In this document: positions 37,271-61,023 of the stretch, piece after piece
Numbering within the stretch: position 1 is the first letter of the stretch
Layout of the letters: every line of letters begins with the position of its first letter
Origin: Planctomycetes bacterium syqfu
Lineage (GTDB): Bacteria; Planctomycetota; Phycisphaerae; Phycisphaerales; Phycisphaeraceae
Reading direction: 5' to 3'
Assembly: GCA_020974905.1 (NCBI GenBank)
Contig: CP087563.1
Location: 3,658,001-3,722,000, forward strand
Length of the DNA: 64,000 nucleotides
Notes under the pieces: generated by a model
Database searches by the model: none
The model's input: the letters and a program-made list of their open reading frames with translations, nothing else
Told to the model about the DNA's origin: nothing
Position numbers and translations under genes: made by a program

Positions 37271-37287
37271 GAGTTACTCCGGGTGAA

Positions 37288-41143: not shown

Positions 41144-41182
41144 GTGGTGTAGGCCAAGGAGTTGCACCCTGACCCCAACCCC

Positions 41183-41216
41183 AAACCGGGCGTGCAAGTT
41201 TCCAAGCACCCGGCTT
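41183..41216 (-). ncRNA. Group II intron domain V
   Basis: This 34-nt hairpin (minus strand) has the AGC triad near its 5' side (AAGCCGGG), a GAAA-capped tip and the complementary CCCGGTTT. Two U-U mismatches are predicted in the upper stem, which is unusual for this most conserved domain. Confidence 0.75.
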
Positions 41217-41234
41217 TCCCGATATTTCTTGACA

Positions 41235-43829: not shown

Positions 43830-43865
43830 AAAAAATCTCCTGTTATGAAGGGTTATTTGGGTGTT

Positions 43866-44261: not shown

Positions 44262-44266
44262 GGTGG

Positions 44267-44704: not shown

Positions 44705-44934
44705 CCTCGAAGTAAACTAAAAAGTATGTTCACCAAACTCGTCACACCGGCACCGGCGATCAGCCACATCCAACGAGCATGACGAATCGTGTTTTGTTCC
44801 AGGCGATCCAGACGAATGTTGATGCCCGGTTCACCATTGCCACGGATGGCATGATCGAGCCGATCAAGTTTGTTGTGCAGTTCATCAAACTGACTGCAAT
44901 TGGAATCGCATGCGTGATGCGCTGGATTGGTCAT
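44701..44934 (-). CDS. Small coiled-coil membrane protein, possible holin
   Basis: The 77-residue protein MTNPAHHACDSNCSQ has a coiled coil (FDELHNKLDRLDHAIRGN... LDRLEQNT) and one C-terminal membrane segment (WMWLIAGAGVTSLVNILFSLL). This topology occurs in phage holin-like and XhlA-type proteins. Its place inside the head-tail connector cluster is unusual for a holin. The start 44934 is preferred over 45006 because it overlaps the upstream stop by 4 nt. Confidence 0.6.
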   Translation of the reverse strand: MTNPAHHACDSNCSQFDELHNKLDRLDHAIRGNGEPGINIRLDRLEQNTIRHARWMWLIAGAGVTSLVNILFSLLRG

Positions 44935-45296
44935 GTATTTGCGTCTCCCAATAGTCGGGTGTGAATGCGTAAAGTGGTGTGGTACGGATCGCAGTAGCGG
45001 TAGCAACCGTCGTCACCGAAATTGGTGATCTCGTATTGCTTGTCATCCATCGTCAGGATGTCGCCGGGTGTAGGCTCGAACTCTGCCGGGAAGTCATCAG
45101 CATTGATCAAAAAATCCCACATGCTCGACTCGATGGTCACGCCACCGACTGTGGATTTTTCGTACTTACTGATGCCCGGCGAAGCATGGATGGTGTACGA
45201 GGAGTCGCCTTGTTTGTAGGCGACTTCCTGCGTACACCATCCCGCCCTCACCCTGGCGAGCCACTGCATGCCTTCTTTCATGTAGTCTCTGGCCAT
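44931..45296 (-). CDS. Head-tail joining protein
   Basis: This 121-residue protein contains PTPGDILTMDDKQYEITNFGDDGCYRYCD, which resembles the OB/SH3-like core of head-closure or stopper proteins (PGDxxxxxGxxYEV pattern). It lies between the decoration protein and the connectors. The start MARDYMKEGMQWL is near the 5' limit of the frame. No better-defined family was recognised. Confidence 0.6.
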   Translation of the reverse strand: MARDYMKEGMQWLARVRAGWCTQEVAYKQGDSSYTIHASPGISKYEKSTVGGVTIESSMWDFLINADDFPAEFEPTPGDILTMDDKQYEITNFGDDGCYRYCDPYHTTLRIHTRLLGDANT

Positions 45297-45309
45297 GCAT
45301 CCCCCGGAA

Positions 45310-45642
45310 CTATGCGGTTAACTTCACACGAACGATGGCATCGTTGTCACCGGCATTAGCCACGGCTTTGCCCATGTACTTGCCTTCGATTTCAGTGGGT
45401 GTCACGTACTTGTTGGCCGAGTCCCAGTAAAGCTTGGTGCCGGTGGTGATGGCCATACCTGGGCCACCGATCTTGGGGACATCGAAGATGCCGGTCACCG
45501 ACAGACTGCCGAGGATGTTGGCAGCGATGTCGAGTTTGGCAATCCCCACCAAGTCTTCCTGGACAACGACGTCACCTGCGGCCACGTCAACGGCTGGTGT
45601 GTAATCGATACTGTCACCTTTGTGAACGAATGTTGCGATCAT
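45310..45642 (-). CDS. DUF2190 capsid decoration-like protein
   Basis: This 110-residue beta-rich protein starts MIATFVHKGDSIDYTPAVDVAAGDVV. The pattern VHKGDSIDYTP then DLVGIAKLDIAAN and LYWD matches DUF2190, a family next to capsid genes in many prophages and thought to decorate the head. It follows the capsid gene by 81 bp. Confidence 0.8.
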   Translation of the reverse strand: MIATFVHKGDSIDYTPAVDVAAGDVVVQEDLVGIAKLDIAANILGSLSVTGIFDVPKIGGPGMAITTGTKLYWDSANKYVTPTEIEGKYMGKAVANAGDNDAIVRVKLTA

Positions 45643-45723
45643 GTAAGAAATACTCCTGCAAAAAGAAAAAAATCAAAAACAGCTTGTTTTCAAGGGGAAA
45701 AATACGGATACTTCCTGTAAGGA

Positions 45724-47796
45724 TTACGCCTCGCCCTTGAATTTCACCGCGCCGCGATGGTCCTGTTCACGCACGCCAAAATCGATATACCCCCTAAACT
45801 GAACCCCGAGCGTTGAAAAATCGGCGTCGGTTTTTTCGACGGTGGGACGGTCGACACCATTGAGGAAGGCGACTTCAATAGCCGACAGTCGATTCGGATC
45901 TGCCAACAGGTACCAGGCCTTATTCGACGCATTGGTGAAGCTGGTGTTGGAGAGGTAGACGCTGGACACCACATCGAACTTACCCGCATGTGGATTCGTT
46001 GCGGGCTTGGCTTTGTTGGTCGTGGTGGTCTCGTTGAGCTGCAGGCTCTTCATCAGCATTTCGGCGGCCACCTTGAGTCCCGGTGGCACGAGCAGCAGCG
46101 ACGGCATGATGCCAAGTGGCTTACCGTTGGGTTTGACCTGCTGAGCAAAGAGGATTTCGGCTGCGGTGAGCCCATCGATGGACAGCGCGGTGTCGGCACC
46201 CTCGCTGTAGTTGTTGTGATCCGTGTGGAAGAACGCTTTGCCATCGGCCTGCGTGGGGTTACGCAACCACAAGCTCCACACCGCTTCGGCGATGGACTCG
46301 GCAGCGCCCATGCCGATCTGGCGGGGAATGTCGGTGAAGGCGCCCAGGTCATCGTTGATGATCATCTGCCGGGTCAGCGCGAACATGATGCCGTGCGTGT
46401 CGGCCTTCTGCCCGAACTGCTGCTCGTCCAGTTGCCCATGCTTGATCTCACCGTCGGGGCCGACCTGCTGGAACTTGAAGGAACCCGTCATGCGATAACG
46501 CGTGTGTTCCTTAAAATCGTTGACACTGGCGATCTTGGCGATGCGCCGCCAGGCATCTTCGACGTAGTTGTAGCCTTCCAGCAGCATCTTGTTGGCAATG
46601 TTGCTTAAAACACCGGGCAAGGACGCACTGCTGAAGGCGGCTTGCAACCAGCCGGTGGCATCGCGACGGAACCGGGGCAACTGCTGGCCACATGCCATTT
46701 CGCAGAATTCCTGCACGCCGATCCCGCGCAGCTTGTCGGCAGCTTCGAGGACGGGTTCGGCATACAACGCCTGCACCCGACTGCTGGGCAGACCACTGGC
46801 CATGAGGGCGACGGCTTCGAACACTTGAGGATTGTTTGGACGCTGGGCACCCGAACTTTGGATGGCCATCGGAACCTGCGGGCGCGACGCGCGGAGGACA
46901 TGCAGTTCAGTCTTGGTCACATCCCAACCTTCCTCGATGGCCTGTGCCTCAATGTCCGGATGCTTGCCTTCGCAGGTACTGCGGATTGCCTGGATGCGAC
47001 GGGTTTCCTCAGCCATCTGTTTGCGCATTTGCATCATCGGTGCATCCGAGACATCTTCCGTTGCACGCGCGGCGATGGCGGGAGGACTCGTGGGCGTCGG
47101 GGAATCCGAGGTCGGGGCTTTGGATGGCGTGTTTTCGGTGGTCGGAGGTGTGACCGGCGCGTGATCAGCAACGGTGGTGGTGGCGGACTGTTGCTGGGCG
47201 GTGGTTGCTTGGCTTTGTGTACCATGCGGCATAGACGATTGCTCCTTGCTGTTGGCTGCGATGCGGGCAGACGTAGACGAGTCTGCCCCGTTATCGACGA
47301 ATGAGATTTCCTTGAGGATGGCTTTGCGGACGACGTGGATTGGCCCGTCAAAAGTTCGGCCATTGACGGTGACGTTCTGACCGTTGGGAATGAACTGGGC
47401 ATCAATCACGGCAGCGCCGATGCTGGCCTGCCAGGGGAAACCGTTCTGACCACTGCGGATCACGTCACGCGCCCAACTGGTGTCACGACTGACGAGGCCC
47501 TCGGCAACGAGGGAACCGTTTTCCACGGCGACGCGCTGCGTGTGGCCCACGCCCTGACGCGATTGGTGATCCAGCCGAACCGGAATGTCCTGACGGTCAA
47601 TGGCCAGACCCTCAAGATCCACCACGACGGGATGAGGAAAGCCTTCGATCCGCATCAGTCCGCCGGTATAAGCGACCATTTTGAACTGCGGCACCCCGCC
47701 CCCGGAAGTTTTCTCTCCAGCGGCTTCGATGGTTAGTGGGCAGATGAACGAAAATTGGTCAGGCAGTTGTTGGGTTGGCGACAGTGTCATCGTCAT
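45724..47796 (-). CDS. Fused prohead protease, scaffold and major capsid protein
   Basis: The 690-residue polyprotein has three parts. Residues 1-180 are an HK97-type prohead protease with VRLDHQSR (His) and WQASIGA (Ser) catalytic motifs. Residues about 185-260 are a Thr/Pro/Ala-rich linker that may act as a scaffold. The rest is a Mu gpT-like major capsid (LTRQMIINDDLGAFTDIPRQ, FFHTDHNNYS, LLLVPPGLKVAAEMLM). Self-cleavage presumably frees the capsid. The start overlaps the portal gene by 38 nt. A 15-nt copy of the dispersed GC-rich repeat (47694-47708) encodes TSGGG in the protease part. Confidence 0.88.
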   Translation of the reverse strand: MTMTLSPTQQLPDQFSFICPLTIEAAGEKTSGGGVPQFKMVAYTGGLMRIEGFPHPVVVDLEGLAIDRQDIPVRLDHQSRQGVGHTQRVAVENGSLVAEGLVSRDTSWARDVIRSGQNGFPWQASIGAAVIDAQFIPNGQNVTVNGRTFDGPIHVVRKAILKEISFVDNGADSSTSARIAANSKEQSSMPHGTQSQATTAQQQSATTTVADHAPVTPPTTENTPSKAPTSDSPTPTSPPAIAARATEDVSDAPMMQMRKQMAEETRRIQAIRSTCEGKHPDIEAQAIEEGWDVTKTELHVLRASRPQVPMAIQSSGAQRPNNPQVFEAVALMASGLPSSRVQALYAEPVLEAADKLRGIGVQEFCEMACGQQLPRFRRDATGWLQAAFSSASLPGVLSNIANKMLLEGYNYVEDAWRRIAKIASVNDFKEHTRYRMTGSFKFQQVGPDGEIKHGQLDEQQFGQKADTHGIMFALTRQMIINDDLGAFTDIPRQIGMGAAESIAEAVWSLWLRNPTQADGKAFFHTDHNNYSEGADTALSIDGLTAAEILFAQQVKPNGKPLGIMPSLLLVPPGLKVAAEMLMKSLQLNETTTTNKAKPATNPHAGKFDVVSSVYLSNTSFTNASNKAWYLLADPNRLSAIEVAFLNGVDRPTVEKTDADFSTLGVQFRGYIDFGVREQDHRGAVKFKGEA

Positions 47797-49255
47797 GTAC
47801 GTTGGTCTCCTGAGAAGATGAAGAAGAAGGTTGAGTAGGCTGACTCTCCGATGTCGTCAGCCCCAGTGTTTGCATGAGTCGGGTTTCCTTGGCACGTTGG
47901 CGAAGCTCGGTTTCCCAGTCCTTACCCTGACGGGCATACTCAGCAGCCAATGTGGTGGTGTGACTTGTCAAACGTTTGGCTTGAGCATTGGCCTCCTTGG
48001 CCGGATCAACATGCTCGGTTCCATCAAAGAACCACCCCCGCCCCCGGAAGCTTAAGAGTTGGTGTTTTGAATTGAGTGACCGTAAAACACCGAACTCCGG
48101 CGTGAGTATGGCCTCGCGTATCCAGGCATTGAAGATTTGATCCAACACGATTTCTGCTAGATGCATCTGTTCCACGCGAATGGATTTGTAGTAGGTCTGA
48201 TGGTCGAGTCGGCCAGAGGCATAGTTGTAGCCCGACGAGTTGCAGGCGGCGATGTTGTAGGGAAGGTTCAGGCAACGCGCGATCTCATTGAGAATCTCGC
48301 GTTTGAACTCTGCATAGGTGGTTGCCGGTTGCTGTGAATCGATCTGTCCCAAACGCCAACCATCAGGCAGCACCGTAGCCATGCGTTTTTCCAGATTGAC
48401 GATATCCATCGGATCAAGCGGTTGGGCTTCACCATTGGCAGGTGAGTCGGTGTACAGCACCGCAGCAAAATCCGCAGCGGTTTCGGCAGCGGCAATCACA
48501 GCCAATGTGTAACGTCGAAGTTGAGCAAACAAAGGAAGTGCAGGAGTAATCTCCGGAATCCCACGATGCTGTTCGGGGCGATCGGCACGGAACCAGTGGA
48601 TCACGGAAGCCGCAGGCACTTCGTCATACTGCGACATCCACGTGGAGTAATTGCCCAAGCCGCCCGGGTGCTGACGCAGGATGGAGTAAAACTGCGGGTT
48701 GCCAAATGAGTCAAGAATCACGCCGTCCACATCGTTGCGTGTCGGCAACATGACCGACGATGGCGACGCGACACGGTCGGCTTCGACCAATTGCAGGTCC
48801 AAAGCTACCGGTGAATCGACGTTGGGATTGAAATTCAAAACACCGAACGCTTCACCGTCTGTGCTCTTGGCCATACGCATCGTGCGGAGCTTGGCGGCCA
48901 GGTTGACGGCCTTGCTCCACTGGGCAAAGGCATCTTCGATCTGACGGTTAAGTGCGTCGTTAGTGGTAAGCAACTGCAGACGCGGCCCCGTACCGATGCA
49001 ATCGTTGGCCATGGTTAGCACAATGCCTTTGGCGTAACTGTTATTGGCCACTTCGTACCGGGCACGCTCACGCAGTTTCTTGCGGATGTCTGCCGATGCT
49101 GCACAGTCTGCCGACATCGCATCAGCCATTGCCCAGTGCCGGGCATTTTCAGCCGTGGTCTGCGCCGCGTCGTAACGCGCTCGTACCACGTTGGTCACCG
49201 GCTGTTGGCGTTGCACCTGCGGTTTGGATTTTTTGAACCAGTTACGAATGTGCAT
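47759..49255 (-). CDS. Phage portal protein, lambda family
   Basis: The 498-residue protein has the lambda-type portal core: an N-terminal ADAMSADCAASADIRKKLRERAR region, NNSYAKGIVLTMANDCIGTGPRL, a clip/stem region with LVEADRV, and EFKREILNEIARCLNLPYN. Twelve copies should form the DNA gate in the capsid vertex. The C-terminus is Ser/Gln/Thr-rich. An exact copy of the dispersed 16-mer (48035-48050) encodes FRGRGW near residue 405. It directly follows the joiner gene (1-nt overlap). Confidence 0.92.
   Translation of the reverse strand: MHIRNWFKKSKPQVQRQQPVTNVVRARYDAAQTTAENARHWAMADAMSADCAASADIRKKLRERARYEVANNSYAKGIVLTMANDCIGTGPRLQLLTTNDALNRQIEDAFAQWSKAVNLAAKLRTMRMAKSTDGEAFGVLNFNPNVDSPVALDLQLVEADRVASPSSVMLPTRNDVDGVILDSFGNPQFYSILRQHPGGLGNYSTWMSQYDEVPAASVIHWFRADRPEQHRGIPEITPALPLFAQLRRYTLAVIAAAETAADFAAVLYTDSPANGEAQPLDPMDIVNLEKRMATVLPDGWRLGQIDSQQPATTYAEFKREILNEIARCLNLPYNIAACNSSGYNYASGRLDHQTYYKSIRVEQMHLAEIVLDQIFNAWIREAILTPEFGVLRSLNSKHQLLSFRGRGWFFDGTEHVDPAKEANAQAKRLTSHTTTLAAEYARQGKDWETELRQRAKETRLMQTLGLTTSESQPTQPSSSSSQETNVHDDDTVANPTTA
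48035..48050 (-). repeat. Dispersed 16-mer CTTCCGGGGGCGGGGG, copy 3
   Basis: Exact copy on the minus strand within the portal gene, read as Ser-Phe-Arg-Gly-Arg-Gly-Trp. Confidence 0.7.
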
Positions 49256-49452
49256 TAAACCGTGCCCCCGGGGTTGATCTTGAAAATCTTCACACCCAGT
49301 CCTTTGGATTGGGCAGCCCTCTTCGATGCCAGGTAGCGATCCACGGCGATCTGGTCTTTGAGCGAATGCTGCTTGATGTGCTGACCGTCAACCGACACTT
49401 CAGCCGGTGCAGATGCGTTTTCTTCGATGTTGTTTTCAATGGAGTCGGTCAT
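49255..49452 (-). CDS. gpW-like head-tail joiner
   Basis: This 65-residue protein, MTDSIENNIEENASAPAEVS, ends DRYLASKRAAQSKGLGVKIFKINPGGTV. Size and place between the large terminase and the portal match the lambda gpW slot; sequence support is weak. The ATG at 49452 follows GGAGTG. About 200 bp between it and the terminase stop (49453-49653) hold no convincing gene. Confidence 0.6.
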   Translation of the reverse strand: MTDSIENNIEENASAPAEVSVDGQHIKQHSLKDQIAVDRYLASKRAAQSKGLGVKIFKINPGGTV

Positions 49453-49653
49453 GTTGGTCACTCCGAAAAAAAATCGTCCCTCTATAAAGTTATTACCCGC
49501 CGAACAGGTGAGTTCGCGCGCGACCTTTAAAAAAAGTGGCTTTTTCCGCAGAAAGTATGTTTCGAGAAAGGTTTTCGGAGCCAATCCAAGCACAGAGCAG
49601 ATGAACAAGATCATCAGAAGCTGTGTTGCGAATTCTGTTGAAAAAAGTGTGGC

Positions 49654-52416
49654 CTATTTGTTTCGCTGCAAGTCTGACAGCTTGACACGTTGCCTGGACC
49701 GCACCGTTCGAGACTCCACTCCCGGAAGCGAGACGCCTTGAATCGACGCAGCTACTGCACAACCGACGAGACAGTCCAGCCAGTGGTTGTCAGGGCGCGT
49801 GGCACGGAGTTTCCACTCATCAACGGTACGGCCTTGGGCTTGAGATTTAACGCGGTACTCTGCTGTGAGGTGATCAGCGATGAGCCGATGAGATTTGTCA
49901 TCGTGGCCAAACAGAGATAGGCATCCCGGATCACCCATCGATACTGATAGACGTGCATGCACGAAGGTCTTCCAGTAATTGGTGTCAATCAGTGCGTGGC
50001 GCACCTGACGCTTGCCCACGGTATTGGGGATTCGCCAATGCAATCCAACACGATCCCCACGCTTACGTTTGTATTCGCTGAAGGGAATACTCGACGCGCC
50101 GACATATCGCCCGTGACTGGGTAACAGCAATCCTGCATGCTGGCTCTGCCGACAGAATTGATACACCACATCAGTGGACTGCCCCCAGTTAGCATCGATC
50201 AGGCATCGGTCGATACGCATCTCCGCGCCGTCATCCCTGTGATAGGTAGCTGCTAATTTCTCAGCGGTAAGGATGTCGAGTCCCGCATAGATTTGTCCCT
50301 CAAGTCCAGCACCCGGTGCAGCACGGCTGATCGTGGATCGAATGTCACGCAGTGTGTAATAAGCGCGTTTCTGCTCTGGCCATGTGCCGTAATCGACAAT
50401 GTAGCCGGTAAAATTATCCTCCCAGCCGCAGAGCATCCAGAACAGAACCTTCTGCTGCACATCGATGAACATCGTCAGGTGGTTGCATACTTGGGGAATC
50501 ACATTCCGGGGGTGGCCATTGGTCTTGGCAGCAATGGCGTTGGCCCCTAGCATCTCCTCGCCTATGGCTTCGACAATTGGTTCGTTCTGATATTCCGCAA
50601 AGAAAGCTGCTTCGTCACGCAACCGTAAGTTCATCGCATGCTGCAAGGCTGATAGTTCGTCTTCATTGAAACGCTCTGGCCAGGCGACAATGCTGCCAGT
50701 GTCCATGGCTTCACGATTGTGTCTGTAAAACTCTGTCGCCAGCGAACCATCACCATCGTTGCGCAGACTGTCAGCACGAATCTCAGCGTATTGGGCCCAG
50801 AGCTTGTCAGTTTCCGGGGCTGGAAAGGCATACACCATCTTGGTGCGTTCACCTTGCCACTCGGGATGTTTGTCCCGATCCAGGATGTTGTCAGCCATAT
50901 CACCAGGCCGGATTACCGTGCAGGCCATGAGTCCAGCGATCTTTTTGCCGGGGCCAGCCATGCCCAATACGTCACCAGCTAAGATGGCTTCGCGTCGTTG
51001 ACTTTGCGAGGGTGACCATGCGGACTCGGTGGTTTGCGGATCATCTACCAACACCAGTTGCGGGCGCACAACCTGCCCATCGGCTCGGGCATAGTTTTGA
51101 CCACGAATGTCACTTCCCTTCATGCCACTGGATGAAATGACAATACCCGACGACAGGCTGCCTTCGATCACCGGCAACACCACGCGATCCGACGACCAGT
51201 CGATGCGCGTAGGCACGCCTTGGTATTTTTGGCCCTTTTGACGATTAGTGATCCGTTCAAGACAGCGGATCGGATACGTGACCTCCGGAAAATCTTCATG
51301 CAGCAGCGGATTCGTCTCCAGCCAGATCTTGATGTTTTCCAGCAGGTCACGGGCACGTTCGGCACTGGCAGCCACCAGGCAGATGAAGGGAGACGCACCG
51401 ATTAACGCCGCCCACAACACAGCAGTCTGACACAGTACCGTGTTGTGCGTGGGCACCATTTTGCGCCCGGCCAGGTATAGGTGTGACGGCGAGTCCACCT
51501 GGATACACCGAACCGGCACCGACTCGGTTGGCGTGATCGACACGATATATCGCTCGGCAGTCAAGGCTTTCAGATCAAACTGAAGATTCTCATCGCATCC
51601 TTGCAACGGATTGACGCGCGGCACGCGATAACGTTTATTGGATATGTACACCCGATTTGCCATGTATTCGGTGGTAAGTGTCAGTGGATTTTTTCGACTG
51701 TACCGATCATTCACTGTCCAGAGATGTTCTGCATCGCAGACGATTTCCTCACCATCGCTGATCCGGACGCGATAACACGGATGATCATGCATCACTTCGG
51801 TGGCATGAGTCACCCGACACATTCGCCCCTGCTCATCGAACAGGGTGTCACCGACTTTGACATCGCCCATGGTGGTCCAGCCGCTGGCCGTGACCAACGG
51901 TGTATCCAAGGCCAAGGCTTTACCTGATCCGCGAGGCATGGCCATGGCAAACAAACCGCCGGTGCGCACGGCTTTCTCGATCTTCTCAATTACACGAAGG
52001 TGGTCGTCGGACCACTGTAAATAGAACACTTCAGCAAAATACGTCTCGCAGAACCCACGGAAAGATGCGATTGCTTGAGCTTTACGATCTGGATTAACGA
52101 CTGTTGGAATTTCGCCGATGTCCTGAGCTGATCGTACGGCCTCAGCTGCGCGTTCAGCCTTGCGTGCTTTTTGCTCTTCATAACTCAAAGGCCCGGTCTT
52201 GGGCTTGGCATATTCCAGCGTCAACCATGCGGCATACCGAAACAGATCCACTGTCTGCGGATTGGATGGATCACTGATGCTGTAACCGGCGCGGTTGCGA
52301 TGACGACGCAATTGGAATTCCGTCAACGAGTCTACGTTGGGCAGATCAACGGCGTTGACAATACGCAGTAAATCTGCTGGCCGGAGTTGGCGTGGGTTGA
52401 ATGACTTCTTACTCAT
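49654..52416 (-). CDS. Large terminase subunit (GpA type) interrupted by an intein
   Basis: The precursor is 920 residues from the ATG at 52416 (GGAGGT upstream). N-extein: ...FAMAMPRGSGK. C-extein: TVLCQTAVLWAALIG. Together these form the Walker A motif PRGSGKT. The C-extein continues with the ATPase (QLVLVDDPQ as Walker B) and a nuclease domain with DANWGQSTDVV and later acidic residues, giving a 761-residue mature GpA-like packaging motor. It cuts concatemers and drives DNA into the portal. Until the intein splices, the ATP site is split, so packaging depends on splicing. It overlaps the small subunit gene by 8 nt. Confidence 0.92.
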   Translation of the reverse strand: MSKKSFNPRQLRPADLLRIVNAVDLPNVDSLTEFQLRRHRNRAGYSISDPSNPQTVDLFRYAAWLTLEYAKPKTGPLSYEEQKARKAERAAEAVRSAQDIGEIPTVVNPDRKAQAIASFRGFCETYFAEVFYLQWSDDHLRVIEKIEKAVRTGGLFAMAMPRGSGKALALDTPLVTASGWTTMGDVKVGDTLFDEQGRMCRVTHATEVMHDHPCYRVRISDGEEIVCDAEHLWTVNDRYSRKNPLTLTTEYMANRVYISNKRYRVPRVNPLQGCDENLQFDLKALTAERYIVSITPTESVPVRCIQVDSPSHLYLAGRKMVPTHNTVLCQTAVLWAALIGASPFICLVAASAERARDLLENIKIWLETNPLLHEDFPEVTYPIRCLERITNRQKGQKYQGVPTRIDWSSDRVVLPVIEGSLSSGIVISSSGMKGSDIRGQNYARADGQVVRPQLVLVDDPQTTESAWSPSQSQRREAILAGDVLGMAGPGKKIAGLMACTVIRPGDMADNILDRDKHPEWQGERTKMVYAFPAPETDKLWAQYAEIRADSLRNDGDGSLATEFYRHNREAMDTGSIVAWPERFNEDELSALQHAMNLRLRDEAAFFAEYQNEPIVEAIGEEMLGANAIAAKTNGHPRNVIPQVCNHLTMFIDVQQKVLFWMLCGWEDNFTGYIVDYGTWPEQKRAYYTLRDIRSTISRAAPGAGLEGQIYAGLDILTAEKLAATYHRDDGAEMRIDRCLIDANWGQSTDVVYQFCRQSQHAGLLLPSHGRYVGASSIPFSEYKRKRGDRVGLHWRIPNTVGKRQVRHALIDTNYWKTFVHARLSVSMGDPGCLSLFGHDDKSHRLIADHLTAEYRVKSQAQGRTVDEWKLRATRPDNHWLDCLVGCAVAASIQGVSLPGVESRTVRSRQRVKLSDLQRNK
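51442..51918 (-). mobile_element. Class 3-type mini-intein in terminase Walker A motif
   Basis: These 159 residues sit between GSGK and T. It begins ALALDTPLVTASGWTTMGDV (Ala at position 1, not Cys or Ser), has block B IVCDAEHLWTV with Trp after His, block F PVRCIQVDSPSHLYLAG with Cys, and block G VPTHN followed by Thr at +1. Trp, Cys and Thr are the marker set of class 3 inteins, which start splicing from the block F Cys. No homing endonuclease domain is present, so it is a mini-intein. Confidence 0.88.
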
Positions 52417-52630
52417 CGTCGACCTCCATCTCCGGTCTAGCCAGGAACGCGACGTAGTCAATCAGGCTGAAGGTGCCATCGGCTCGTAGTAACTGGCCAT
52501 CCTCAACCACCTGCTGAATCTGCTCTTCATCGATCCTGCGATTGAACGCCTTGGACAGAATCTGAGCCGCTTGCGGCACGGTGACCACCGTCATTCTCAA
52601 TGTTTTTGGACTATCTGTAGGTTGTGTCAT
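52409..52630 (-). CDS. Possible small terminase subunit
   Basis: This 73-residue acidic protein starts MTQPTDSPKTLRMTVVTVPQAAQILSK. The stretch VPQAAQILSKAFNRRIDEEQI then DGTFSLIDYVAFLAR looks like a small winged-helix or HTH unit such as the DNA-binding part of Nu1-type subunits. It sits right before the large subunit with an 8-nt overlap. An in-frame extension upstream to 52777 is not supported. Confidence 0.55.
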   Translation of the reverse strand: MTQPTDSPKTLRMTVVTVPQAAQILSKAFNRRIDEEQIQQVVEDGQLLRADGTFSLIDYVAFLARPEMEVDDE

Positions 52631-52743
52631 CAGAATTAAAAAACACCTTAAAAATAAGGGTAAAAGTCGCATTGATGCCTTGTAATCCGTTTCGAATGAT
52701 GGCTCAATGTGTCTGTTACGCGAGCATGAAAGGAACCAAAGCG

Positions 52744-52938
52744 ATGGCCAAGAAAACCACCAAACGTAAACAGGCATACAAGGATGCGACGGTTAACGAA
52801 ATCGCTCAACGCATCCTTGGCATTGACACCTTGGAAACGCGCAAGCGTGATTCACTCGATTTCCACGACGTTGCCGTATGGAGCATCAAAGAAGCACTGG
52901 AAGCTGCCTTTGAGGCCGGACGCAAAGCAGATCATTAA
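52744..52938 (+). CDS. DUF6900-like small protein
   Basis: This 64-residue protein, MAKKTTKRKQAYKDATVNE, has the core LGIDTLETRKRDSLDFHDVAVWSIK followed by ALEAAFEAGRKA. The LETRxxDSLDFHDVAVW block is the mark of DUF6900, found on plasmids and phages. The function is unknown. It is the first gene of a plus-strand cluster divergent from the terminase genes. Confidence 0.75.
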   Translation: MAKKTTKRKQAYKDATVNEIAQRILGIDTLETRKRDSLDFHDVAVWSIKEALEAAFEAGRKADH

Positions 52939-52963
52939 CCCCACGCATAGGAGAAACACATAC

Positions 52964-53224
52964 ATGCGAATCACACGAATTGAGTTTGCAGGACGAACAG
53001 GCATCTTCGCCATCATCAAACGCCCACATGAAGCCAAGCAGATCGAGGTTGAACTGTTGCAGCCCAAGAAGGAAGGTACCCACTGGGTGAAGGCCGATGA
53101 TGAAGACGAACTCTTCTCGATGGCCGCTTTCCTGCAACAAATACTCGATGGCTACGAAGGAACGATGGAAGAAGCTTCCTGCTACTACAACGCACTGATG
53201 TCTATCAGCGATATCGGAATTTGA
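52964..53224 (+). CDS. Small conserved-looking phage protein
   Basis: The 86-residue product MRITRIEFAGRTGIFAIIKR has an AGGAG Shine-Dalgarno 10 nt before the ATG, which fixes the start (a longer frame from 52784 only overlaps the previous gene). Acidic and aromatic stretches (DDEDELFSMAAFLQQILDGYEG) suggest a small alpha-beta fold. No family is recognised. Confidence 0.6.
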   Translation: MRITRIEFAGRTGIFAIIKRPHEAKQIEVELLQPKKEGTHWVKADDEDELFSMAAFLQQILDGYEGTMEEASCYYNALMSISDIGI

Positions 53225-53236
53225 GGAGCCATCACA

Positions 53237-53479
53237 ATGGCAACGAAAAAACAAACGGCGTCTGACGCTTACATCCAACATCGCAAAGACATCACCAGAC
53301 TGATGCTCTGGCTTGAACTCGAACTGGAAAAACACCGAGTCAACGCCAAAGGCCAACCAGACAACTGGAGTTTTTCTGGTGACCTTCAACTCACTCGAAA
53401 ACAATTGATAGACGCACTGGCCTCTATCTCCCACAGCGAACAACATGAAATCGAAGACCTGCTCAGCGAAAGTCGCTGA
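53237..53479 (+). CDS. Small hypothetical phage protein
   Basis: This 80-residue, mostly helical, charged protein, MATKKQTASDAYIQHRKDIT, includes a repeated LELELEKHR helix. It is preceded by GAGGAG and is 12 bp from the previous stop, in one transcription unit with its neighbours. No function is recognised. Confidence 0.55.
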   Translation: MATKKQTASDAYIQHRKDITRLMLWLELELEKHRVNAKGQPDNWSFSGDLQLTRKQLIDALASISHSEQHEIEDLLSESR

Positions 53480-53518
53480 GCATTTTTGTTTACACATTTT
53501 CACAAGGACAAAATCACC

Positions 53519-54073
53519 ATGAAACAAGAAGATATTCAACTCGGCGTCACATACCTCGTCGGCCTCGCAGGCAAACAGGTTCCGGTGCAAATCACCGAAA
53601 ACCATCCTTCGGGCACCGGCTGGTTGGGCAAGACAATCAAGACGGGCAAGCAGATCACAATCCGATCTGCCCAACGGATTCACAAAAAGGCCAGCGACGA
53701 TAAACAGGTGTGCAACACGGCTAACCCCAAGGCCAAGCAAAGCAAGACGACAACAGATACCAAGGCCACTCCGAAACGCGACACCGCCAACCCCCGAAAG
53801 AGTGACGCTACGGGGGAGGAGCAGGACACTAAGCCCATGAGTTTGATCGACGCAGCGGCCCACATTCTGGCTCAAGACAATCAGGAGCCTTTGCGATGCA
53901 AGGACATCGTTGAACAAGTCATTGAAAAAAAGCTTTGGCAACCAGGCAAGGGACTGACCCCAGCCAACACACTTCATGCCGCCATCACCCGGGAGATCAA
54001 AACCAAGGGCAAAGACAGCCGATTCGCCAAGCCTGAACGCGGCCAATACACAGCAAACATGAAAGGGGCTTGA
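53519..54073 (+). CDS. HARE-HTH domain protein
   Basis: This 184-residue protein, MKQEDIQLGVTYLVGLAGKQ, has an N-terminal SH3-like beta region (VPVQITENHPSGTGWLGKT), a long basic Lys/Thr-rich linker, and a C-terminal HARE-HTH winged helix (SLIDAAAHILAQDNQEPLRC... NTLHAAITREIKTKG... RGQYT). HARE-HTH domains occur in chromatin and restriction proteins and in RNA polymerase delta. A role in phage DNA or transcription control is inferred. The ATG at 53519 is chosen because of AAGGAC upstream. Confidence 0.75.
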   Translation: MKQEDIQLGVTYLVGLAGKQVPVQITENHPSGTGWLGKTIKTGKQITIRSAQRIHKKASDDKQVCNTANPKAKQSKTTTDTKATPKRDTANPRKSDATGEEQDTKPMSLIDAAAHILAQDNQEPLRCKDIVEQVIEKKLWQPGKGLTPANTLHAAITREIKTKGKDSRFAKPERGQYTANMKGA

Positions 54074-54076
54074 ACT

Positions 54077-54433
54077 GTGCCACGCAGCAAACGCCAACGC
54101 AATGTGACCTTCCACGTGCAAGAGGATTACCTGGAGATGCGTGTCACCTTCGCGCACCAACCGGACCGCAACTACGTCCACCGATGCACGCGCGACGTTT
54201 TCCGAGAAGTTGCTTACGCCATTGAAGACCATGCCGCAGGCGGCACCACGCTTGAGCAAATCGTCCATGTTATTGATGCACCCTACACACAAGTCAACGT
54301 GGCGCTGGCATTCATGAAGGTGCGAGGATGCGTCGAAATCCGACACCGTCGCACTTTCCCGGCATCGGACATTGTGTATGAAGATGCCATGATCGAGTTC
54401 ATGCATATGGCTCAATGCGCGGAAAATCACTGA
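54077..54433 (+). CDS. Small putative DNA-binding protein
   Basis: This 118-residue basic protein with a GTG start is 3 nt after the HARE-HTH gene. TTLEQIVHVIDAPYTQVNVALAFMKVRGCVEIRHRRTF has the look of a winged helix with a basic wing. It ends the plus-strand cluster, just before a strong terminator. No family is recognised. Confidence 0.6.
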   Translation: MPRSKRQRNVTFHVQEDYLEMRVTFAHQPDRNYVHRCTRDVFREVAYAIEDHAAGGTTLEQIVHVIDAPYTQVNVALAFMKVRGCVEIRHRRTFPASDIVYEDAMIEFMHMAQCAENH

Positions 54434-54457
54434 CTGCATATCAACACCACTTTCTAG

Positions 54458-54481
54458 CCCCGACATCCGTCGGGGTTTTTT
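54458..54481 (+). terminator. Strong intrinsic terminator of the plus-strand cluster
   Basis: CCCCGAC-ATCC-GTCGGGG followed by TTTTTT, 25 nt after the stop of the last plus-strand gene. Confidence 0.93.
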
Positions 54482-54579
54482 CGTGAACTTTTTGTGAATC
54501 AATATTGGAGGTTGGCAACGCTCCGATATAATGATTGGATCAATTGGAGTATGGATACGTTTGTTCGCTGATTGAGTTG

Positions 54580-55950
54580 TCAGGCTTTTGAGTCGGGCGA
54601 CTGTTTGGCGGCAATTCGTTTGGCTTTCTTGCCGGTAAACTCCTCCCACCGTTTGACAATGACATCTGCGTATAACGGATCGATTTCCATCAGGAAGGCG
54701 TGACGTCCGGTCTGCTCACAACCCATGAGAGTAGAACCGCTGCCACCGAACAAATCGAGGACGTTGTCGCCAGGTTTGGACGAATATTGAATGCAGCGAA
54801 CAGCTAATTCGACGGGTTTCTCCGTCAAATGCACCATGGCCTGTGGGTTTACCTTTTTTACATGCCACAAGTCTGTAGCATTGTTAGGACCATAGAACTG
54901 ATGGCCCGCGCCCTCTTTCCATCCATAAAAACAAATCTCGAAAGCACCCATAAAGTCTTTGCGTGTAAGGACTGGATGCTGTTTATCCCAGATAATTCCC
55001 TGGGAAAAATACAAACCTGCGGCTTTGATGGGGGCGGGATAGTTACCGAGATTGGCATAGCCTCCCCAGATAAAAAATGAGCCACCGGGCTTGAGCACGC
55101 GCGACGCATTGGCGAACCATGCCAAGAGCATCTTGTCGAAATCTTCATCACTGACAAAGTCGTTTGCCAACGGACGATCCTTGGCTCGCATTTTTTGCTT
55201 GGCCTTTTTCCTGTCGGTGGCACCGCGTGCTTTGTCAAAACTTTGGTGATGCAGGTGGGCTTTCTTGTCCCCGAATGAACTGTTGCCAGCCGCGATGGCG
55301 GTGCTGCTGCGTGGCTCAACCCGGACATTATATGGAGGATCCATACTAACTAAATCAATGGTTTTGCCATCCAACAAATGGTCCAAATCTTCCTTCGAAC
55401 TGCTGTCGCCACACATCAAACGATGGTTACCCAGCACCCAAATGTCACCAGGCTGCGTGGTCGCGGCATCCGGTGGTTCGGGGATGGAATCCGGATCAGT
55501 CAAGCCTTCCGATACACCTTGGGCTTCGGTCATGAGCTTGCCCAATTCCTCTTCGTCGAAGAACAAAATGTCCATGTCGAATCCACCCTCGCGTAACTCG
55601 TTGAGCTCAATGGGCAAGATCGACATATCCCATTCGGCGATTTCCCCGGTGCGATTGTCAGCCAGTCGGTATGCACGAACTTGCTCCGGCGTCAGATCGG
55701 TAGCGACATGCACCGGCACCTTGGCAAGGCCGAGTTTTGTCGCGGCTTTCCAGCGCGTGTGGCCTGCGATGATCACACCGTCTTCGTCGACGACGATGGG
55801 TTGCCTGAACCCAAACTCCGCCAGCGAACCCGCTACGGCGTCCACCGCCTTGTCGTTGATGCGTGGGTTGCGCTCGTAGGGTTTGACGTCCTCGATTTTG
55901 CGAAGCTCGACTTTGAAATTGGAAATGACGATGTCCTGAGTCGTGGTCAT
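54580..55950 (-). CDS. ParB-domain DNA methyltransferase (DPPY, beta class)
   Basis: The 456-residue protein has an N-terminal ParB/Srx-like domain (EDVKPYERNPRINDKAVDAV, GVIIAGHTRWKAA) and a C-terminal amino-methyltransferase with DPPYNV and then FGGSGSTLMGCEQTGR, so the order is catalytic motif before SAM motif. It should methylate N6-adenine or N4-cytosine. The type is common on phages and may protect phage DNA from restriction. AAAGGAC precedes the ATG at 55950. No restriction partner is nearby. Confidence 0.9.
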   Translation of the reverse strand: MTTTQDIVISNFKVELRKIEDVKPYERNPRINDKAVDAVAGSLAEFGFRQPIVVDEDGVIIAGHTRWKAATKLGLAKVPVHVATDLTPEQVRAYRLADNRTGEIAEWDMSILPIELNELREGGFDMDILFFDEEELGKLMTEAQGVSEGLTDPDSIPEPPDAATTQPGDIWVLGNHRLMCGDSSSKEDLDHLLDGKTIDLVSMDPPYNVRVEPRSSTAIAAGNSSFGDKKAHLHHQSFDKARGATDRKKAKQKMRAKDRPLANDFVSDEDFDKMLLAWFANASRVLKPGGSFFIWGGYANLGNYPAPIKAAGLYFSQGIIWDKQHPVLTRKDFMGAFEICFYGWKEGAGHQFYGPNNATDLWHVKKVNPQAMVHLTEKPVELAVRCIQYSSKPGDNVLDLFGGSGSTLMGCEQTGRHAFLMEIDPLYADVIVKRWEEFTGKKAKRIAAKQSPDSKA

Positions 55951-56226
55951 AAAAGTCCTTTAAAATAGTGTTTTTTTGCTTAAAAATTTTGCGGCGCGTT
56001 TTTCGGCAAGTCTGTCTAATAACGTGGCTGGTTCCCGCGACATCACAAAGGCTGATTCCCGCCAAGTACCTATTTAAATCGGCCCTGATTGGCCTCTGTG
56101 GCCGACCTCGGCCTTGATGCCATCAACGCTACGTCCGTTGCTCAAATGCCATAAACGCCAACGTGTGGCGATGTGTGGTAAACGTGATTTAAATATATTT
56201 TCATTGTGCGATACTTGACGCGAGGC

Positions 56227-56263
56227 ACTGTTCTATCTGCGATAAAAACGCAGATAGAACAGT
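56227..56263. promoter_or_regulatory. Perfect 15-bp inverted repeat
   Basis: ACTGTTCTATCTGCG (56227-56241), loop ATAAAAA, CGCAGATAGAACAGT (56249-56263). It shares the half-site CTATCTGCG with the next hairpin. It could be an operator pair or a terminator. Confidence 0.7.
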
Positions 56264-56285
56264 TGGTAATTACCTCATCGCATGG

Positions 56286-56310
56286 CTATCTGCGCCATTG
56301 GCGCAGATAG
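56286..56310. promoter_or_regulatory. Perfect 11-bp inverted repeat with shared core
   Basis: CTATCTGCGCC (56286-56296), ATT, GGCGCAGATAG (56300-56310), at the 3' end of the 87-residue Cys-rich protein gene. The repeated CTATCTGCG core appears four times in 85 bp. Confidence 0.65.
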
Positions 56311-56311
56311 A

Positions 56312-56575
56312 TCACGACGCCGTTTGATTGATACTTGTGCAGCTGGCGTTGCGGCGTGGACCACGCGTATGCTGAGCACACCAACCCGTTGATAGCATGG
56401 GTGGCCAAGTTGCTCGGTAGAACGATTTGCCATCATGGCCAAGACGGGGCTTGGGTGCATGATAATGACAAGTCCCATGGATCGGATTTTTCGTATGATC
56501 ACTTTTCATATCTTCACCATGACTATCGCTGTTAGGCACGAAGCACATACAATTAAGACAACATAAATCACTCAT
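56312..56575 (-). CDS. Small Cys-rich phage protein
   Basis: This is an 87-residue protein. It starts MSDLCCLNCMCFVPNSD and has GTCHYHAPKPRLGHDGKSFY then WPPMLSTGWCAQHT. The Cys and His pattern (CxxCxC... CHYH... C..H) suggests zinc binding. AAAGGAT lies 10 nt before the ATG. Function is unknown. Confidence 0.55.
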   Translation of the reverse strand: MSDLCCLNCMCFVPNSDSHGEDMKSDHTKNPIHGTCHYHAPKPRLGHDGKSFYRATWPPMLSTGWCAQHTRGPRRNASCTSINQTAS

Positions 56576-56637
56576 TAAACATATCCTTTACATATTTTGG
56601 TTCATATCTCGATACATACTTTGATTGGAAGGTCTGT

Positions 56638-56970
56638 TTACTTCACAGATTCGATGGTCACTGGCCCAGGCGTATTGCTGGTGCCGACATACAGCACATC
56701 ATCAGACGTTGGTTTGTATTGGCGAGTGCGCTGGGCAGCTTCATTGATCTTTGAAGCCAGATCCGGATATTCCTTGGCAAGCCAGGAAGCCGGTGCGTAG
56801 ATGTGCCCCTCATATGCCAACTGCCGTTTACAGTCGTGGATGAGGCAGAGTGCCATGATGAATTCATCACCGAAGACTTCGGCAGGCATATACACTTCAC
56901 CATCCTCATCGAGGAACACGGTGTTGCGCCATGGCATGGTCGCGGATTTCATGGAGATAATTTGGAACAT
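56638..56970 (-). CDS. Hypothetical early phage protein
   Basis: This 110-residue protein, MFQIISMKSATMPWRNTVFL, contains EVYMPAEVFGDEFIMALCLIHDCKRQL. AAAGGAAAACC precedes the ATG at 56970, chosen over an upstream start at 57000. No family is recognised. Confidence 0.6.
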   Translation of the reverse strand: MFQIISMKSATMPWRNTVFLDEDGEVYMPAEVFGDEFIMALCLIHDCKRQLAYEGHIYAPASWLAKEYPDLASKINEAAQRTRQYKPTSDDVLYVGTSNTPGPVTIESVK

Positions 56971-57037
56971 GGTTTTCCTTTCAGATAGTTGTTTGGCCAA
57001 TAGGCCGTTGTGTTTTTTCTGTTGACGTTTTTGCTTT

Positions 57038-57101
57038 ACCCCCTTGCCTTACGGGGCTACGGGGGCGGTTTCAAAACGCCCCGTACCCCCGTAAGGGGGT
57101 T
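57038..57101. repeat. Large GC-rich imperfect hairpin
   Basis: CCCCCTT-GCC-TTACGGGGCTACGGGGGCG pairs with GCCCCGTACCCCCGTAAGGGGG around GTTTCAAAAC (minor bulges). It lies in the gene-free stretch 57001-57346 between two early genes and may be a transcription block, a replication-related structure or a REP-type palindrome. Confidence 0.6.
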
Positions 57102-57346
57102 AGAGTGCGCGAGTTCCGCCCCATAATGCCGGTCTTAAATTTTTGTAAGTTGTTTATTTTCAGCACTTGTAAATTCAAGAACGACCGGAACCAGGTCGCT
57201 TTTTGCGGCGCGCCGCACAAAGCGCCGCACAAAATCAAGACGTCGTTTGTAAATGTGATATTTTTCATGACTTAAAACTTTCAAGACCGGAACTGGAGGC
57301 GGAACTGGCCAAAATCAGCACTTTTCTCAGTGCCGGTCATAAGTCC

Positions 57347-59497
57347 TTATTTTTCGTTGCGGATTTGTCGCAGATATCGCTCGGAAACACCCGCTTTTTC
57401 GGCGATCTCCAGCAAGGGTGCGTCGGGGTTGTGGGCTATGACAGCGGCGACTAACTGGGCCTTGTCGCCGGTGTATCCAGGCCGGTTTTTGACGTATTGA
57501 ATCTTGGAGCCGTTGCGTATCTTGATGACGGATTCACGCTCAAGAGCAAGATCAAGCATCTCTCTAAACCGACGTTCGGAGAGTTGCAGACGTTGAGCTG
57601 CTTCATATTGAATGGAGCGTTTGGAACATGGATCGTTGATGGCGATGCACTCATCGATGAACTCATCCATCGTGACTTCAACCGCTTTCGTTTTAGGCTT
57701 GGCTGAACCGAGCAGCGCAGACGTGTCCACTTCCTCGGTGGGTACGAACAGCGGCCACTCCAGTCGCAGCGCCTTAGGTGGCATGGCTGGCCAACTGCGG
57801 ACAGCAGCTTCAAGCACGACGATGTCATCTTCTTCATGAGGCCGGATCACCAAGTGTGTATCAGCTGCGCGTGACTGACTGCCCGCACCTGCACCGACAT
57901 CGGTAACTGCTTTGCCCGACTGATTGCCCTTGCTGGTGTGGTGAATCATTGCAAACGCGCATTGCAGCTTGGCAGCATAGTGATCGATCCGGTTGTACAG
58001 ACTAGCAATGGCACCGTTGTCGTTCTCGTCTGTGTCCTGGGGCAGGGCACGGTAGAACGCATCAATGATGATGAGCTTGTATTGACCGGGCTCTATCTTG
58101 TCGAACATCGACCCCATGGCCACAAGGTCCTTGAGTTTGCCGCGATGACAGACGATGTCGATGTTGTCACTGAACAGATGATGCGACAGGTTCATCGCCT
58201 TGGTGATCTTCAGGTAACGATCCGTGATGGTTGGGACGTGCAGTTCGTTGTCGATGTGGAGGACCTGTCCCTGCTCAACATTCATGCCAAACCAGTCCAT
58301 ACCTGTTGCGATTGAGATGGCCAGGCCCGAGACGAGCAGACTCTTACCCATCTTCGGGCTGGCAATGATGTTCATAGTCTCACCTTCACGGAGCATGCCG
58401 TGGACGATGGGTTTATGCAGGCCGTTAAAGGTGGTGATTAAATCTTTGAGCCGAACGATTGGCAGCTTGTCATCAGACATTGACTCTGTATTTTTGCTGT
58501 TGGCACACTGATTGAGGATGCCGGTAAGATCGACATCGTTGTTCGATGCTGAATCGTCATTGCCATAACCAAGCTCGCTAAGTGCCCGAGCTGCAGCGGA
58601 GAAATCACCACCATGTTCCAGGAGTGTATAGACATGGAATGGTGAATAATATTTTTGTGCTTCAAACGGATGGGCATTGGTTGAGAAGACGGAGAACACA
58701 CCGTTTTTTAGCGTTGCTGAATGATTGACAGTTTTACCGGGCCGACGCCAATGCTCATTTTCACCGGGTTGATCCAATACCCAATCGTGCTTCAGTAACC
58801 ACTCACGCACGTCACCACGTTTGTTGAAATCATCACCAGGCCGGTCAATTCGCCATGTCGTATTGTGCGAAGACAATTCGCACATGTCTGAATTTTCCGC
58901 CGATGTGCGACTGATATTCGCACCTGTGGCCGATGATTCGAACTCATACTCGTTGAGCTGCCAAGCGGCGTCGAGCAACGTATCACGCTCAGTCTCCGTA
59001 AGGATAGGTAGATTGGCGATATCACCTTGGGTTACTTCATAGCCCGACGTCGGGACACACAGGAACAGGCCACCTTCACCACGGGTTTCGATCAAGGTTT
59101 GAACTGTGTCGCCGGTCTTACGCTGGGCCAGCTTGAGATTGCCGCTGACAGGTACGCTGCACTGATAGATCACATGGCTGCCACCCGATGGTGTCGATTC
59201 GATCACCAAACGCTCGCGTAGATCGTTGGGGATCGCCTTCAGCCATGCCGGTAATAATTCGCCACCACCGTCAAAGTCGATGATCTCCAGGTTGCCCGAT
59301 ACCTTGCCGCAGATGATGCACAGCCCGTCGTTCCATGGCCAGGAGGACAACTCAGCAGACGTGGGAATACGCTGCTGGAACTGCTTCCATTTACCGATGG
59401 CCGGACGTTTTTCCGCACGGATCGCTGGCAGGACACACAGGCCCGCATCCAAGTAGTTTTGAGCCACCTTGTTTAATTGTCCATCAGTCAGTTGCAC
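57347..59497 (-). CDS. Primase-polymerase/RecA-like helicase fusion
   Basis: The 716-residue protein has an N-terminal AEP-type primase-polymerase domain (VLPAIRAEKRPAIGKWKQF... LEIIDFDGGGEL with DxD; RGEGGLFLCVPTSGYE). A central RecA-like ATPase (NIIASPKMGKSLLVSGLA as Walker A; LIIIDAFYRALPQDTDEND as Walker B; AMIHHTSKG) follows, and C-terminal HTH segments (AAQRLQLSERRFREML; LLEIAEKAGVSERYLRQI). It probably primes and unwinds phage DNA. It is the main replication protein here. The gene overlaps the next upstream gene by 10 nt. Confidence 0.88.
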   Translation of the reverse strand: MQLTDGQLNKVAQNYLDAGLCVLPAIRAEKRPAIGKWKQFQQRIPTSAELSSWPWNDGLCIICGKVSGNLEIIDFDGGGELLPAWLKAIPNDLRERLVIESTPSGGSHVIYQCSVPVSGNLKLAQRKTGDTVQTLIETRGEGGLFLCVPTSGYEVTQGDIANLPILTETERDTLLDAAWQLNEYEFESSATGANISRTSAENSDMCELSSHNTTWRIDRPGDDFNKRGDVREWLLKHDWVLDQPGENEHWRRPGKTVNHSATLKNGVFSVFSTNAHPFEAQKYYSPFHVYTLLEHGGDFSAAARALSELGYGNDDSASNNDVDLTGILNQCANSKNTESMSDDKLPIVRLKDLITTFNGLHKPIVHGMLREGETMNIIASPKMGKSLLVSGLAISIATGMDWFGMNVEQGQVLHIDNELHVPTITDRYLKITKAMNLSHHLFSDNIDIVCHRGKLKDLVAMGSMFDKIEPGQYKLIIIDAFYRALPQDTDENDNGAIASLYNRIDHYAAKLQCAFAMIHHTSKGNQSGKAVTDVGAGAGSQSRAADTHLVIRPHEEDDIVVLEAAVRSWPAMPPKALRLEWPLFVPTEEVDTSALLGSAKPKTKAVEVTMDEFIDECIAINDPCSKRSIQYEAAQRLQLSERRFREMLDLALERESVIKIRNGSKIQYVKNRPGYTGDKAQLVAAVIAHNPDAPLLEIAEKAGVSERYLRQIRNEK

Positions 59498-61012: not shown

Positions 61013-61023
61013 TGTCTAATCTT

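What the first reader, a model, noticed from the sequence alone, without database searches (positions are those of the whole stretch)
51442..51918. Class 3-type mini-intein splitting the Walker A motif of the large terminase
Insertion between GSGK and T places the intein in the catalytic centre, so only spliced protein can package DNA. Ala at position 1, Trp in block B, Cys in block F and Thr at +1 fit class 3 inteins, which are rarer than Cys1 inteins. It has no homing endonuclease.
Basis: partly seen in the sequence, partly recalled or inferred. Interest (0 to 1): 0.7.

Follow-up and report, generated by a model that had tools for sequence, protein, structure and literature searches.

The report
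Self-splicing insert in phage packaging motor
A bacterial chromosome carries twelve sister viruses, and in some of them the gene for the DNA-packaging motor is interrupted, exactly at its ATP-binding site, by a protein segment that should cut itself out; the sister copies show the site empty, occupied by a full mobile insert, and occupied by a shrunken one.

Summary
Window 51442-51918 (-) encodes a 159-residue class 3 mini-intein lying exactly between Lys and Thr of the Walker A motif (PRGSGK|T) of a prophage large terminase (TerL). All class 3 residues are present: Ala1, His65, Trp67, Cys138, Thr157, His158, Asn159 and Thr+1. One correction: the Thr of the WCT signature is Thr157, not the +1 Thr. 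The best solved-structure matches are the class 3 DnaB inteins 6bs8, 6rix and 6riy, by sequence and by fold (Z about 21).

(1) The chromosome holds 12 syntenic prophages. Two TerLs carry the mini-intein, two carry a 346-residue version with a LAGLIDADG endonuclease domain, and eight have the site empty (six of these intact). (2) The mini-intein is a deletion derivative: the endonuclease is cut out in frame and its edges remain. (3) Intein synonymous divergence is lower than extein divergence, and trees of related phages conflict at one supported point, so the intein has moved between TerL alleles.

Class 3 inteins in TerL and the Lys|Thr P-loop site are both published, so this is a new member of a known kind. 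The three homing states side by side in one chromosome are the interesting part. Splicing and endonuclease activity are inferred, not shown.

The parts
49654..52461 (-). ORF of the intein-bearing terminase large subunit (935 aa from TTG; likely start ATG at 52416)
   Evidence: PHROG 15 terminase large subunit 1.6e-50, Pfam GpA_nuclease 1.6e-25
51442..51918 (-). class 3 mini-intein, 159 residues
51919..52416 (-). N-extein, ending in PRGSGK (Walker A, 51919-51936)
49654..51441 (-). C-extein with stop, beginning with the Walker A Thr (+1; 51439-51441); Walker B-like VLVDDP at 51037-51054, nuclease-like motifs at 50458-50472, 50182-50205 and 49771-49788
   Evidence: conserved columns of alignment A1; the motif names are from established knowledge
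51916..51918 (-). Ala1 in place of the Cys/Ser/Thr1 nucleophile
51718..51726 (-). block B His65 (51724-51726) and Trp67 (51718-51720)
   Evidence: same numbers as His65 and Trp67 of MchDnaB1 in PMC7664689 (passages)
51562..51567 (-). scar where the endonuclease domain is missing, between Ala118 and Leu119
51505..51507 (-). block F Cys138, the class 3 nucleophile
51442..51450 (-). block G Thr157-His158-Asn159
34330..64000 (.). part inside the window of the prophage shared by 12 sites in this chromosome (DNA similarity runs on to about window position 66,960): tape measure 37288-39660, capsid/protease 45724-47796, portal 47759-49255, TerL, methyltransferase 54580-55950, primase/helicase 57347-59497, ResIII helicase 61024-62772

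Best explanation
This is a class 3 mini-intein that removes itself from the precursor of a prophage packaging ATPase. Inferred chemistry: Cys138 attacks the Lys-Ala1 bond at the N-terminal junction, assisted by His65, Trp67 and Thr157. The N-extein is passed to Thr+1, Asn159 cyclises, and the joined product has an intact PRGSGKT P-loop; unspliced precursor should not bind ATP properly. Shown here: the position, the residues, the class 3 family and fold, purifying selection, empty and endonuclease-bearing sister alleles, and loss of the endonuclease by an in-frame deletion. Inferred: splicing itself, endonuclease activity in the sister copies, and homing as the way the intein spread.
For: Exact insertion at K|T. 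Empty site in six intact sister TerLs. Solved class 3 inteins are the best sequence hits (6rix 1.3e-31, 6bs8 5.4e-31). AlphaFold model (mean pLDDT 84.7) aligns to 6riy (Z 21.5, 1.7 A, 130 residues) and 6bs8 (Z 21.3, 1.1 A, 125 residues), above the class 1 rows at 18.2 and lower. In an alignment of 15 short inteins that I chose (window plus 14 of the 16 listed; L059 and L099 left out), His65, Trp67, Cys138, Thr157, His158 and Asn159 are invariant and position 1 is Ala in 14, Gly in 1. dN/dS is 0.06 between the two mini-inteins and 0.06 between the two full ones; the endonuclease part alone is also 0.06. LAGLIDADG_3 matches in the sister copies: 8.4e-05 (over cut-off) and 0.001 (below it). Intein dS is below extein dS in 6 of 6 pairs: C2763-C2846 0.42 against 1.17, with 0 of 84 equally long extein blocks as low and 0 of 300 shuffles. 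Trees conflict: inteins L136 and L138 are sisters (100/99) while extein L136 is sister to L144 (100/100). The TerL model is most like phage large terminases (8dgc, T4 gp17 3ezk/3cpe, HK97 6z6d).
Against: No splicing data. Neither Pfam nor NCBIfam gives a match over cut-off for this segment: PT-HINT at E 0.036, rSAM_Rv_intein at 0.00043 with 19.3 of 700 bits. Z does not sort by class alone: the split class 3 intein 6zgq is at Z 15.8, below many class 1 rows. W against C5790 alone shows only a weak dS difference (0.45 against 0.64; 15 of 300 shuffles, 35 of 124 blocks), so homing between those two is not shown. The mini-inteins and their TerLs group alike in both trees, and in 167 of 253 pairs the intein is no more alike than the extein, which fits much plain descent. 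The TerL model is weak (pLDDT 63.8; TM-scores 0.15-0.44 for the terminase rows), and the TerL profile found no solved chain by sequence at E 0.01.
Confidence: 0.93

Rival explanations
1. A splicing-dead intein relic in a decayed prophage: the residues look right but the protein no longer splices and the TerL is useless.
For: Two of the 12 sister TerLs are broken into pieces (C2684 and C3183), so decay does occur among these prophages.
Against: The window TerL is one open frame. Intein dN/dS is 0.06, all catalytic residues are intact, and the neighbouring capsid, portal and tape-measure genes are single open frames with family matches.
Confidence: 0.04
2. A regulatory switch: the intein is kept because its cysteine nucleophile makes TerL activation respond to redox stress, so packaging waits for a suitable host state.
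For: PMC6195587 is titled 'Mycobacterial DnaB helicase intein as oxidative stress sensor' (title and start of abstract in listings only); a figure legend of PMC7664689 reports inhibition of MchDnaB1 N-cleavage by H2O2, and MchDnaB1 is among the closest solved relatives. The window intein holds five cysteines.
Against: Eight of 12 sister prophages do without any intein, so no switch is needed by this phage family. The state changes at least 17 times on the TerL tree, which looks like a selfish element. Not tested.
Confidence: 0.1
3. An ordinary terminase insertion or another Hint-fold domain (pretoxin-type, bacterial intein-like).
For: Weak PT-HINT match, E 0.036, below cut-off.
Against: Empty sister sites at the same residue, class 3 residues and THN|T end, and class 3 inteins as best structural matches.
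Confidence: 0.01

Closest known systems
Class 3 DnaB inteins of M. smegmatis (6bs8) and M. chimaera MchDnaB1 (6rix, 6riy)
   Same: Ala1, His65, Trp67, block F Cys, THN end, Hint fold, endonuclease-free length (139 and 145 residues against 159); the aligned ends also read ALAL...VPTHN
   Different: Host protein is a helicase, not a terminase; 50-51% identity over the structurally aligned residues
Mycobacteriophage TerL inteins (TerL1-a to -e, TerL6-f; PMC5050341, sections 9 and 10 read, other parts as passages)
   Same: Large terminase hosts; TerL1-a sits between the P-loop Lys and Thr; TerL1-c, -d and -e are treated as class 3; splicing shown in a reporter for five of seven sites, endonuclease cutting for two
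   Different: Those are terminase_1 or terminase_6-like proteins of mycobacteriophages; here a GpA-nuclease type TerL of prophages in a planctomycete-like genome. Whether TerL1-a is class 3 was not seen in what I read. Gaia TerL (TerL1-e), among the best named-phage hits, is 44.6% identical and sits at Walker B
Inteins in the same TerL family of Planctomycetota MAGs and uncultivated virus contigs (e.g. L048, L049, L128)
   Same: Same site, same class 3 ends; L128 is the same 159-residue mini-intein at 95%
   Different: Most carry 345-395-residue versions; L131/L132 carry a separate 145-residue form

Membership tests
Class 3 inteins | No Cys, Ser or Thr at position 1 | tested here: met
   Ala1
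Class 3 inteins | Trp at B:12, Cys at F:4, Thr at G:5 (WCT) | tested here: met
   Trp67, Cys138, Thr157, by alignment; definition from passages of PMC3196547 and PMC5222942
Class 3 inteins | His B:10, His G:6, Asn G:7, Ser or Thr at +1 | tested here: met
   His65, His158, Asn159, Thr+1
Class 3 inteins | Nearest relatives are class 3 | tested here: met
   6rix, 6bs8 and 6riy are the best three of six sequence hits and the best fold matches. No tree with class 1 outgroups was built
Class 3 inteins | Splicing through the block F Cys branched intermediate | not testable with these tools
   Needs expression and Cys138Ala
Mini-inteins | No homing endonuclease domain | tested here: met
   181 residues with both LAGLIDADG motifs absent relative to sisters
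Phage terminase large subunit | P-loop ATPase plus RNase H-like nuclease, with packaging neighbours | tested here: met
   PHROG 15, GpA_nuclease, fold matches to large terminases from a moderate model, portal and capsid genes adjacent
P-loop K|T intein site (TerL1-a-like position) | Insertion between invariant Lys and Thr of Walker A | tested here: met

The most novel reading that the evidence does not exclude
The chromosome is a live homing arena: full-length class 3 inteins in two prophages still encode an active endonuclease that can cut and convert empty P-loop sites of sister prophages in the same cell. Invasion, endonuclease loss and intein loss are then all under way at one site within one chromosome, alongside a recently mobile group II intron and a second P-loop intein (class 1 by its Cys1 start) in the helicase gene of the same phage family. 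The host must survive, or be protected from, up to eight uncut target sites.
Probability: 0.3. Interest if true: 0.65.

Novelty: new member of a known kind. Interest (0 to 1): 0.45.

Why it matters
The intein itself is a well-placed example of a known class. What it adds is a natural series within one cell: six intact empty alleles, two full alleles and two mini alleles of one gene, with the same neighbours. That lets the homing cycle (invasion, endonuclease loss, intein loss) be studied without comparing distant species. It also raises a direct question: how does a chromosome tolerate an intact-looking homing endonuclease gene beside six intact empty sites that differ at 2 to 8 of 30 bases from the joined sites of the two carriers? 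It gives a class 3 mini-intein and its endonuclease-bearing sisters as matched material for splicing work.

Tried and rejected
Rejected: an ordinary terminase insertion (empty sites at the same residue); a pretoxin-type Hint domain (only a sub-cut-off match); clean recent transfer of the mini-intein between W and C5790 (dS difference weak, 15 of 300 shuffles).

Looked for and not settled. Co-conversion tracts around the insertion site: windowed identity is mosaic throughout TerL, so no tract could be drawn. Whether the empty alleles C5708 and C3348, which fall inside the mini-intein clade, lost the intein by recombination with an empty allele: they share TVCC after the site with empty C2930 and C3134, but windows disagree. 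A close named phage: the intein-free TerL finds 105 phage records, the 15 listed at about 25-28% identity and including Mu-like Pseudomonas phages such as DMS3 (Mu-like is recalled); none covers 80% of the query. Counting bias: the TerL relatives came from intein-led scans and one TerL-led scan, each capped at 80 loci, so 23 of 101 with intein is no frequency. Rows dropped before the tree: two duplicate contigs (L275, L295), L050 (partial), L129 (no C end), empty ORFs of 600 residues or less, and ORFs without the motif. Among 61 genomes searched as relatives, own genome included, 3 have any match to the intein.

Searches for a report of the three states within one genome: 'intein + homing cycle + empty + paralog' (one review, listing only), 'intein + homing endonuclease + mini-intein + coexist + alleles' (one paper: PMC4071816, passages read; states coexist across halobacterial lineages), 'intein + prophages + same genome + terminase large subunit' (three papers, listing only), 'intein + planctomycet' (22 papers, 15 listed, listing only). 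Nothing I saw describes it, but I read none of these in full, and most subscription journals are not held.

Full report
What is there. The minus-strand ORF at 49654-52461 encodes 935 residues. Residues ALALDTP...VPTHN, 159 in all, at 51442-51918, lie between PRGSGK and TVLC. The ORF is a terminase large subunit: PHROG 15 at 1.6e-50, the GpA endonuclease domain at 1.6e-25, and, for a model of the intein-free sister C3348, fold matches led by phage terminases (8dgc_E, T4 gp17, HK97), though that model is only moderate (mean pLDDT 63.8). The gene sits in a prophage with portal, capsid/protease, tape measure, methyltransferase and primase/helicase genes.

Class. The segment's best solved relatives are three class 3 inteins: 6rix (1.3e-31), 6bs8 (5.4e-31) and 6riy (6.8e-31), ahead of two gp41-1 entries at 2.7e-05 and 0.0018. 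Position 1 is Ala. His65 and Trp67 fall at the same numbers as in MchDnaB1, whose triad is Cys124-His65-Thr143 with Trp67 (PMC7664689, passages). The +1 Thr is itself typical of class 3, per PMC5222942. A model with 15 native residues on each side (mean pLDDT 84.7) aligns to 6riy at Z 21.5 and 6bs8 at Z 21.3, with class 1 inteins at 18.2 and below; 6riz at 18.3 is a gp41-1 intein engineered with class 3 residues. A split class 3 intein, 6zgq, is lower, at 15.8, so Z does not follow class alone.

Sister copies. A GpA-nuclease search of the window's own 7.38-Mb chromosome gives 14 matches. Twelve belong to one family of syntenic prophages; DNA similarity to the window copy spans about window 34,330-66,960 in most, ending near 64,440 in C2930. 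Of the other two, C344 is a distant TerL at 37-38% and C4181 has no TerL match at this level. Of the 12 TerLs, two have the 159-residue intein (window and C5790), two have a 346-residue intein (C2763, C2846), six are intact and empty (776, 776, 763, 777, 777, 773 residues), and two are broken and empty (C2684, C3183). The empty alleles read PRGSGK|TV (PRGTGK|TV in C2684), which shows directly where the insertion lies.

Origin of the mini form. The 346-residue inteins hold a LAGLIDADG domain: Pfam LAGLIDADG_3 at 8.4e-05, over cut-off, in C2763, and 0.001, below cut-off, in C2846. Both LAGLIDADG-type motifs, LGVWLGDG and LLQGMMDTDG, are present in both. The mini-intein aligns with them without interruption except for six residues (KRGRSE) and 181 residues removed between DPYA and LSASRRIV, leaving DLKA-LTAERYIV. 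TTG stands at both edges in the full forms and once in the mini form, which fits a short-repeat deletion (inference). The same 159-residue form at 95% is in virus contig L128, so the deletion is not an assembly quirk. A second short form of 145 residues occurs in L131 and L132.

Selection and movement. dN/dS is 0.06 for mini against mini, 0.06 for full against full, and 0.06 for the endonuclease part alone (187 codons). Intein dS is lower than extein dS in all six pairs of intein-bearing TerLs. For C2763-C2846 it is 0.42 against 1.17; no extein block of equal length is as low (0 of 84) and no shuffle matches (0 of 300). For the window and C5790 it is 0.45 against 0.64, with 35 of 124 blocks and 15 of 300 shuffles, which is weak. 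dS values above 1 are near saturation, so sizes are rough. On a tree of 101 TerLs (23 with intein) the state needs at least 17 changes, 15 forced by well-supported branches; shuffled labels need 20.6 on average, and only 5 to 10 of 500 shuffles are as low, so the state is also somewhat clustered. In trees of the 23 intein-bearing TerLs the inteins of L136 and L138 are sisters (100/99) while the TerL of L136 is sister to that of L144 (100/100) and that of L138 lies elsewhere, a clear case of intein transfer; other groupings agree, including mini with mini and full with full. Identity of inteins and exteins is correlated (Spearman 0.60, 253 pairs), and the intein is the more alike of the two in 86 of 253 pairs, so much of the history is also vertical.

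Mechanism. I take it that the precursor folds, the intein splices by the class 3 route, and the joined P-loop then works. [quoted passage not shown] For this intein nothing is measured.

Place among known things. Class 3 inteins, TerL inteins, and the Lys|Thr P-loop site are all published. The named-phage collection has 367 records with a match to this intein at E 1e-5. PHROG 15 itself appears to include an intein in its profile, since the isolated segment matches its positions 79-206. What I did not find in the searches listed under Tried and rejected is a single chromosome with empty, full and mini alleles side by side. That coexistence across lineages is known (PMC4071816, passages).

Score. 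The finding is correct and ordinary in kind; the setting is unusual and useful. Interest 0.45, new member of a known kind.

Noticed in passing
L057, L058, L060, L062-L066, L070, L154, L156-L158, L160-L162, L165, L166, L168-L170, L172, L174-L177, L180-L182: In 29 loci (21 distinct 150-base stretches; 9 from genome contigs whose titles name Rhodobacteraceae or genera recalled as such, 20 virus contigs), a P-loop class 3 intein in a terminase-like gene is encoded in two overlapping ORFs, the second in the +1 frame in 29 of 29, with ATG (28) or TTG (1) at the same codon and a purine-rich stretch shortly upstream. After that codon the second frame is the constrained one. Two further loci with another offset (L186, L202) were left out. 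This looks like a naturally split class 3 intein or a programmed frameshift; PMC7891396 (passages) reports the first natural one and calls them very rare. One search for split intein, terminase and overlap gave one paper, listing only.
   Followed up: partly
window 41144-42917 (-): Group II intron: Rfam RF00029 at 41144-41218 and a reverse transcriptase with HNH domain at 41235-42917. The RT is 98-99% identical in prophages W, C2763 and C2930, and this copy was not found in the other nine, pointing to recent movement.
   Followed up: partly
L007:16189-18984 (-): The ResIII helicase of sister prophage C2763 carries its own P-loop intein (PTG|CHAKG...HHN|SGKT, Cys1, hence class 1 by that residue) with LAGLIDADG matches; the window's helicase (61024-62772) lacks it, and Hom_end_hint finds no other place in the genome.
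   Followed up: partly
G000:C1:1064828-1067590 (inside L209 and L042): In prophage C1074 a divergent reverse transcriptase (38% to the window's) is in one open frame of 921 residues with the rear part of the tape measure protein.
   Followed up: no
window 27738-33086 (-): SspB, SspC and SspD matches (8.3e-91, 3.4e-295, 4.4e-106), a defence module (phosphorothioation-linked, recalled) beside the prophage edge.
   Followed up: no
L059:5281-7188: A Conexibacter intein has Cys at position 1 together with block F Cys, THN end and +1 Thr, after YDN rather than a P-loop.
   Followed up: no
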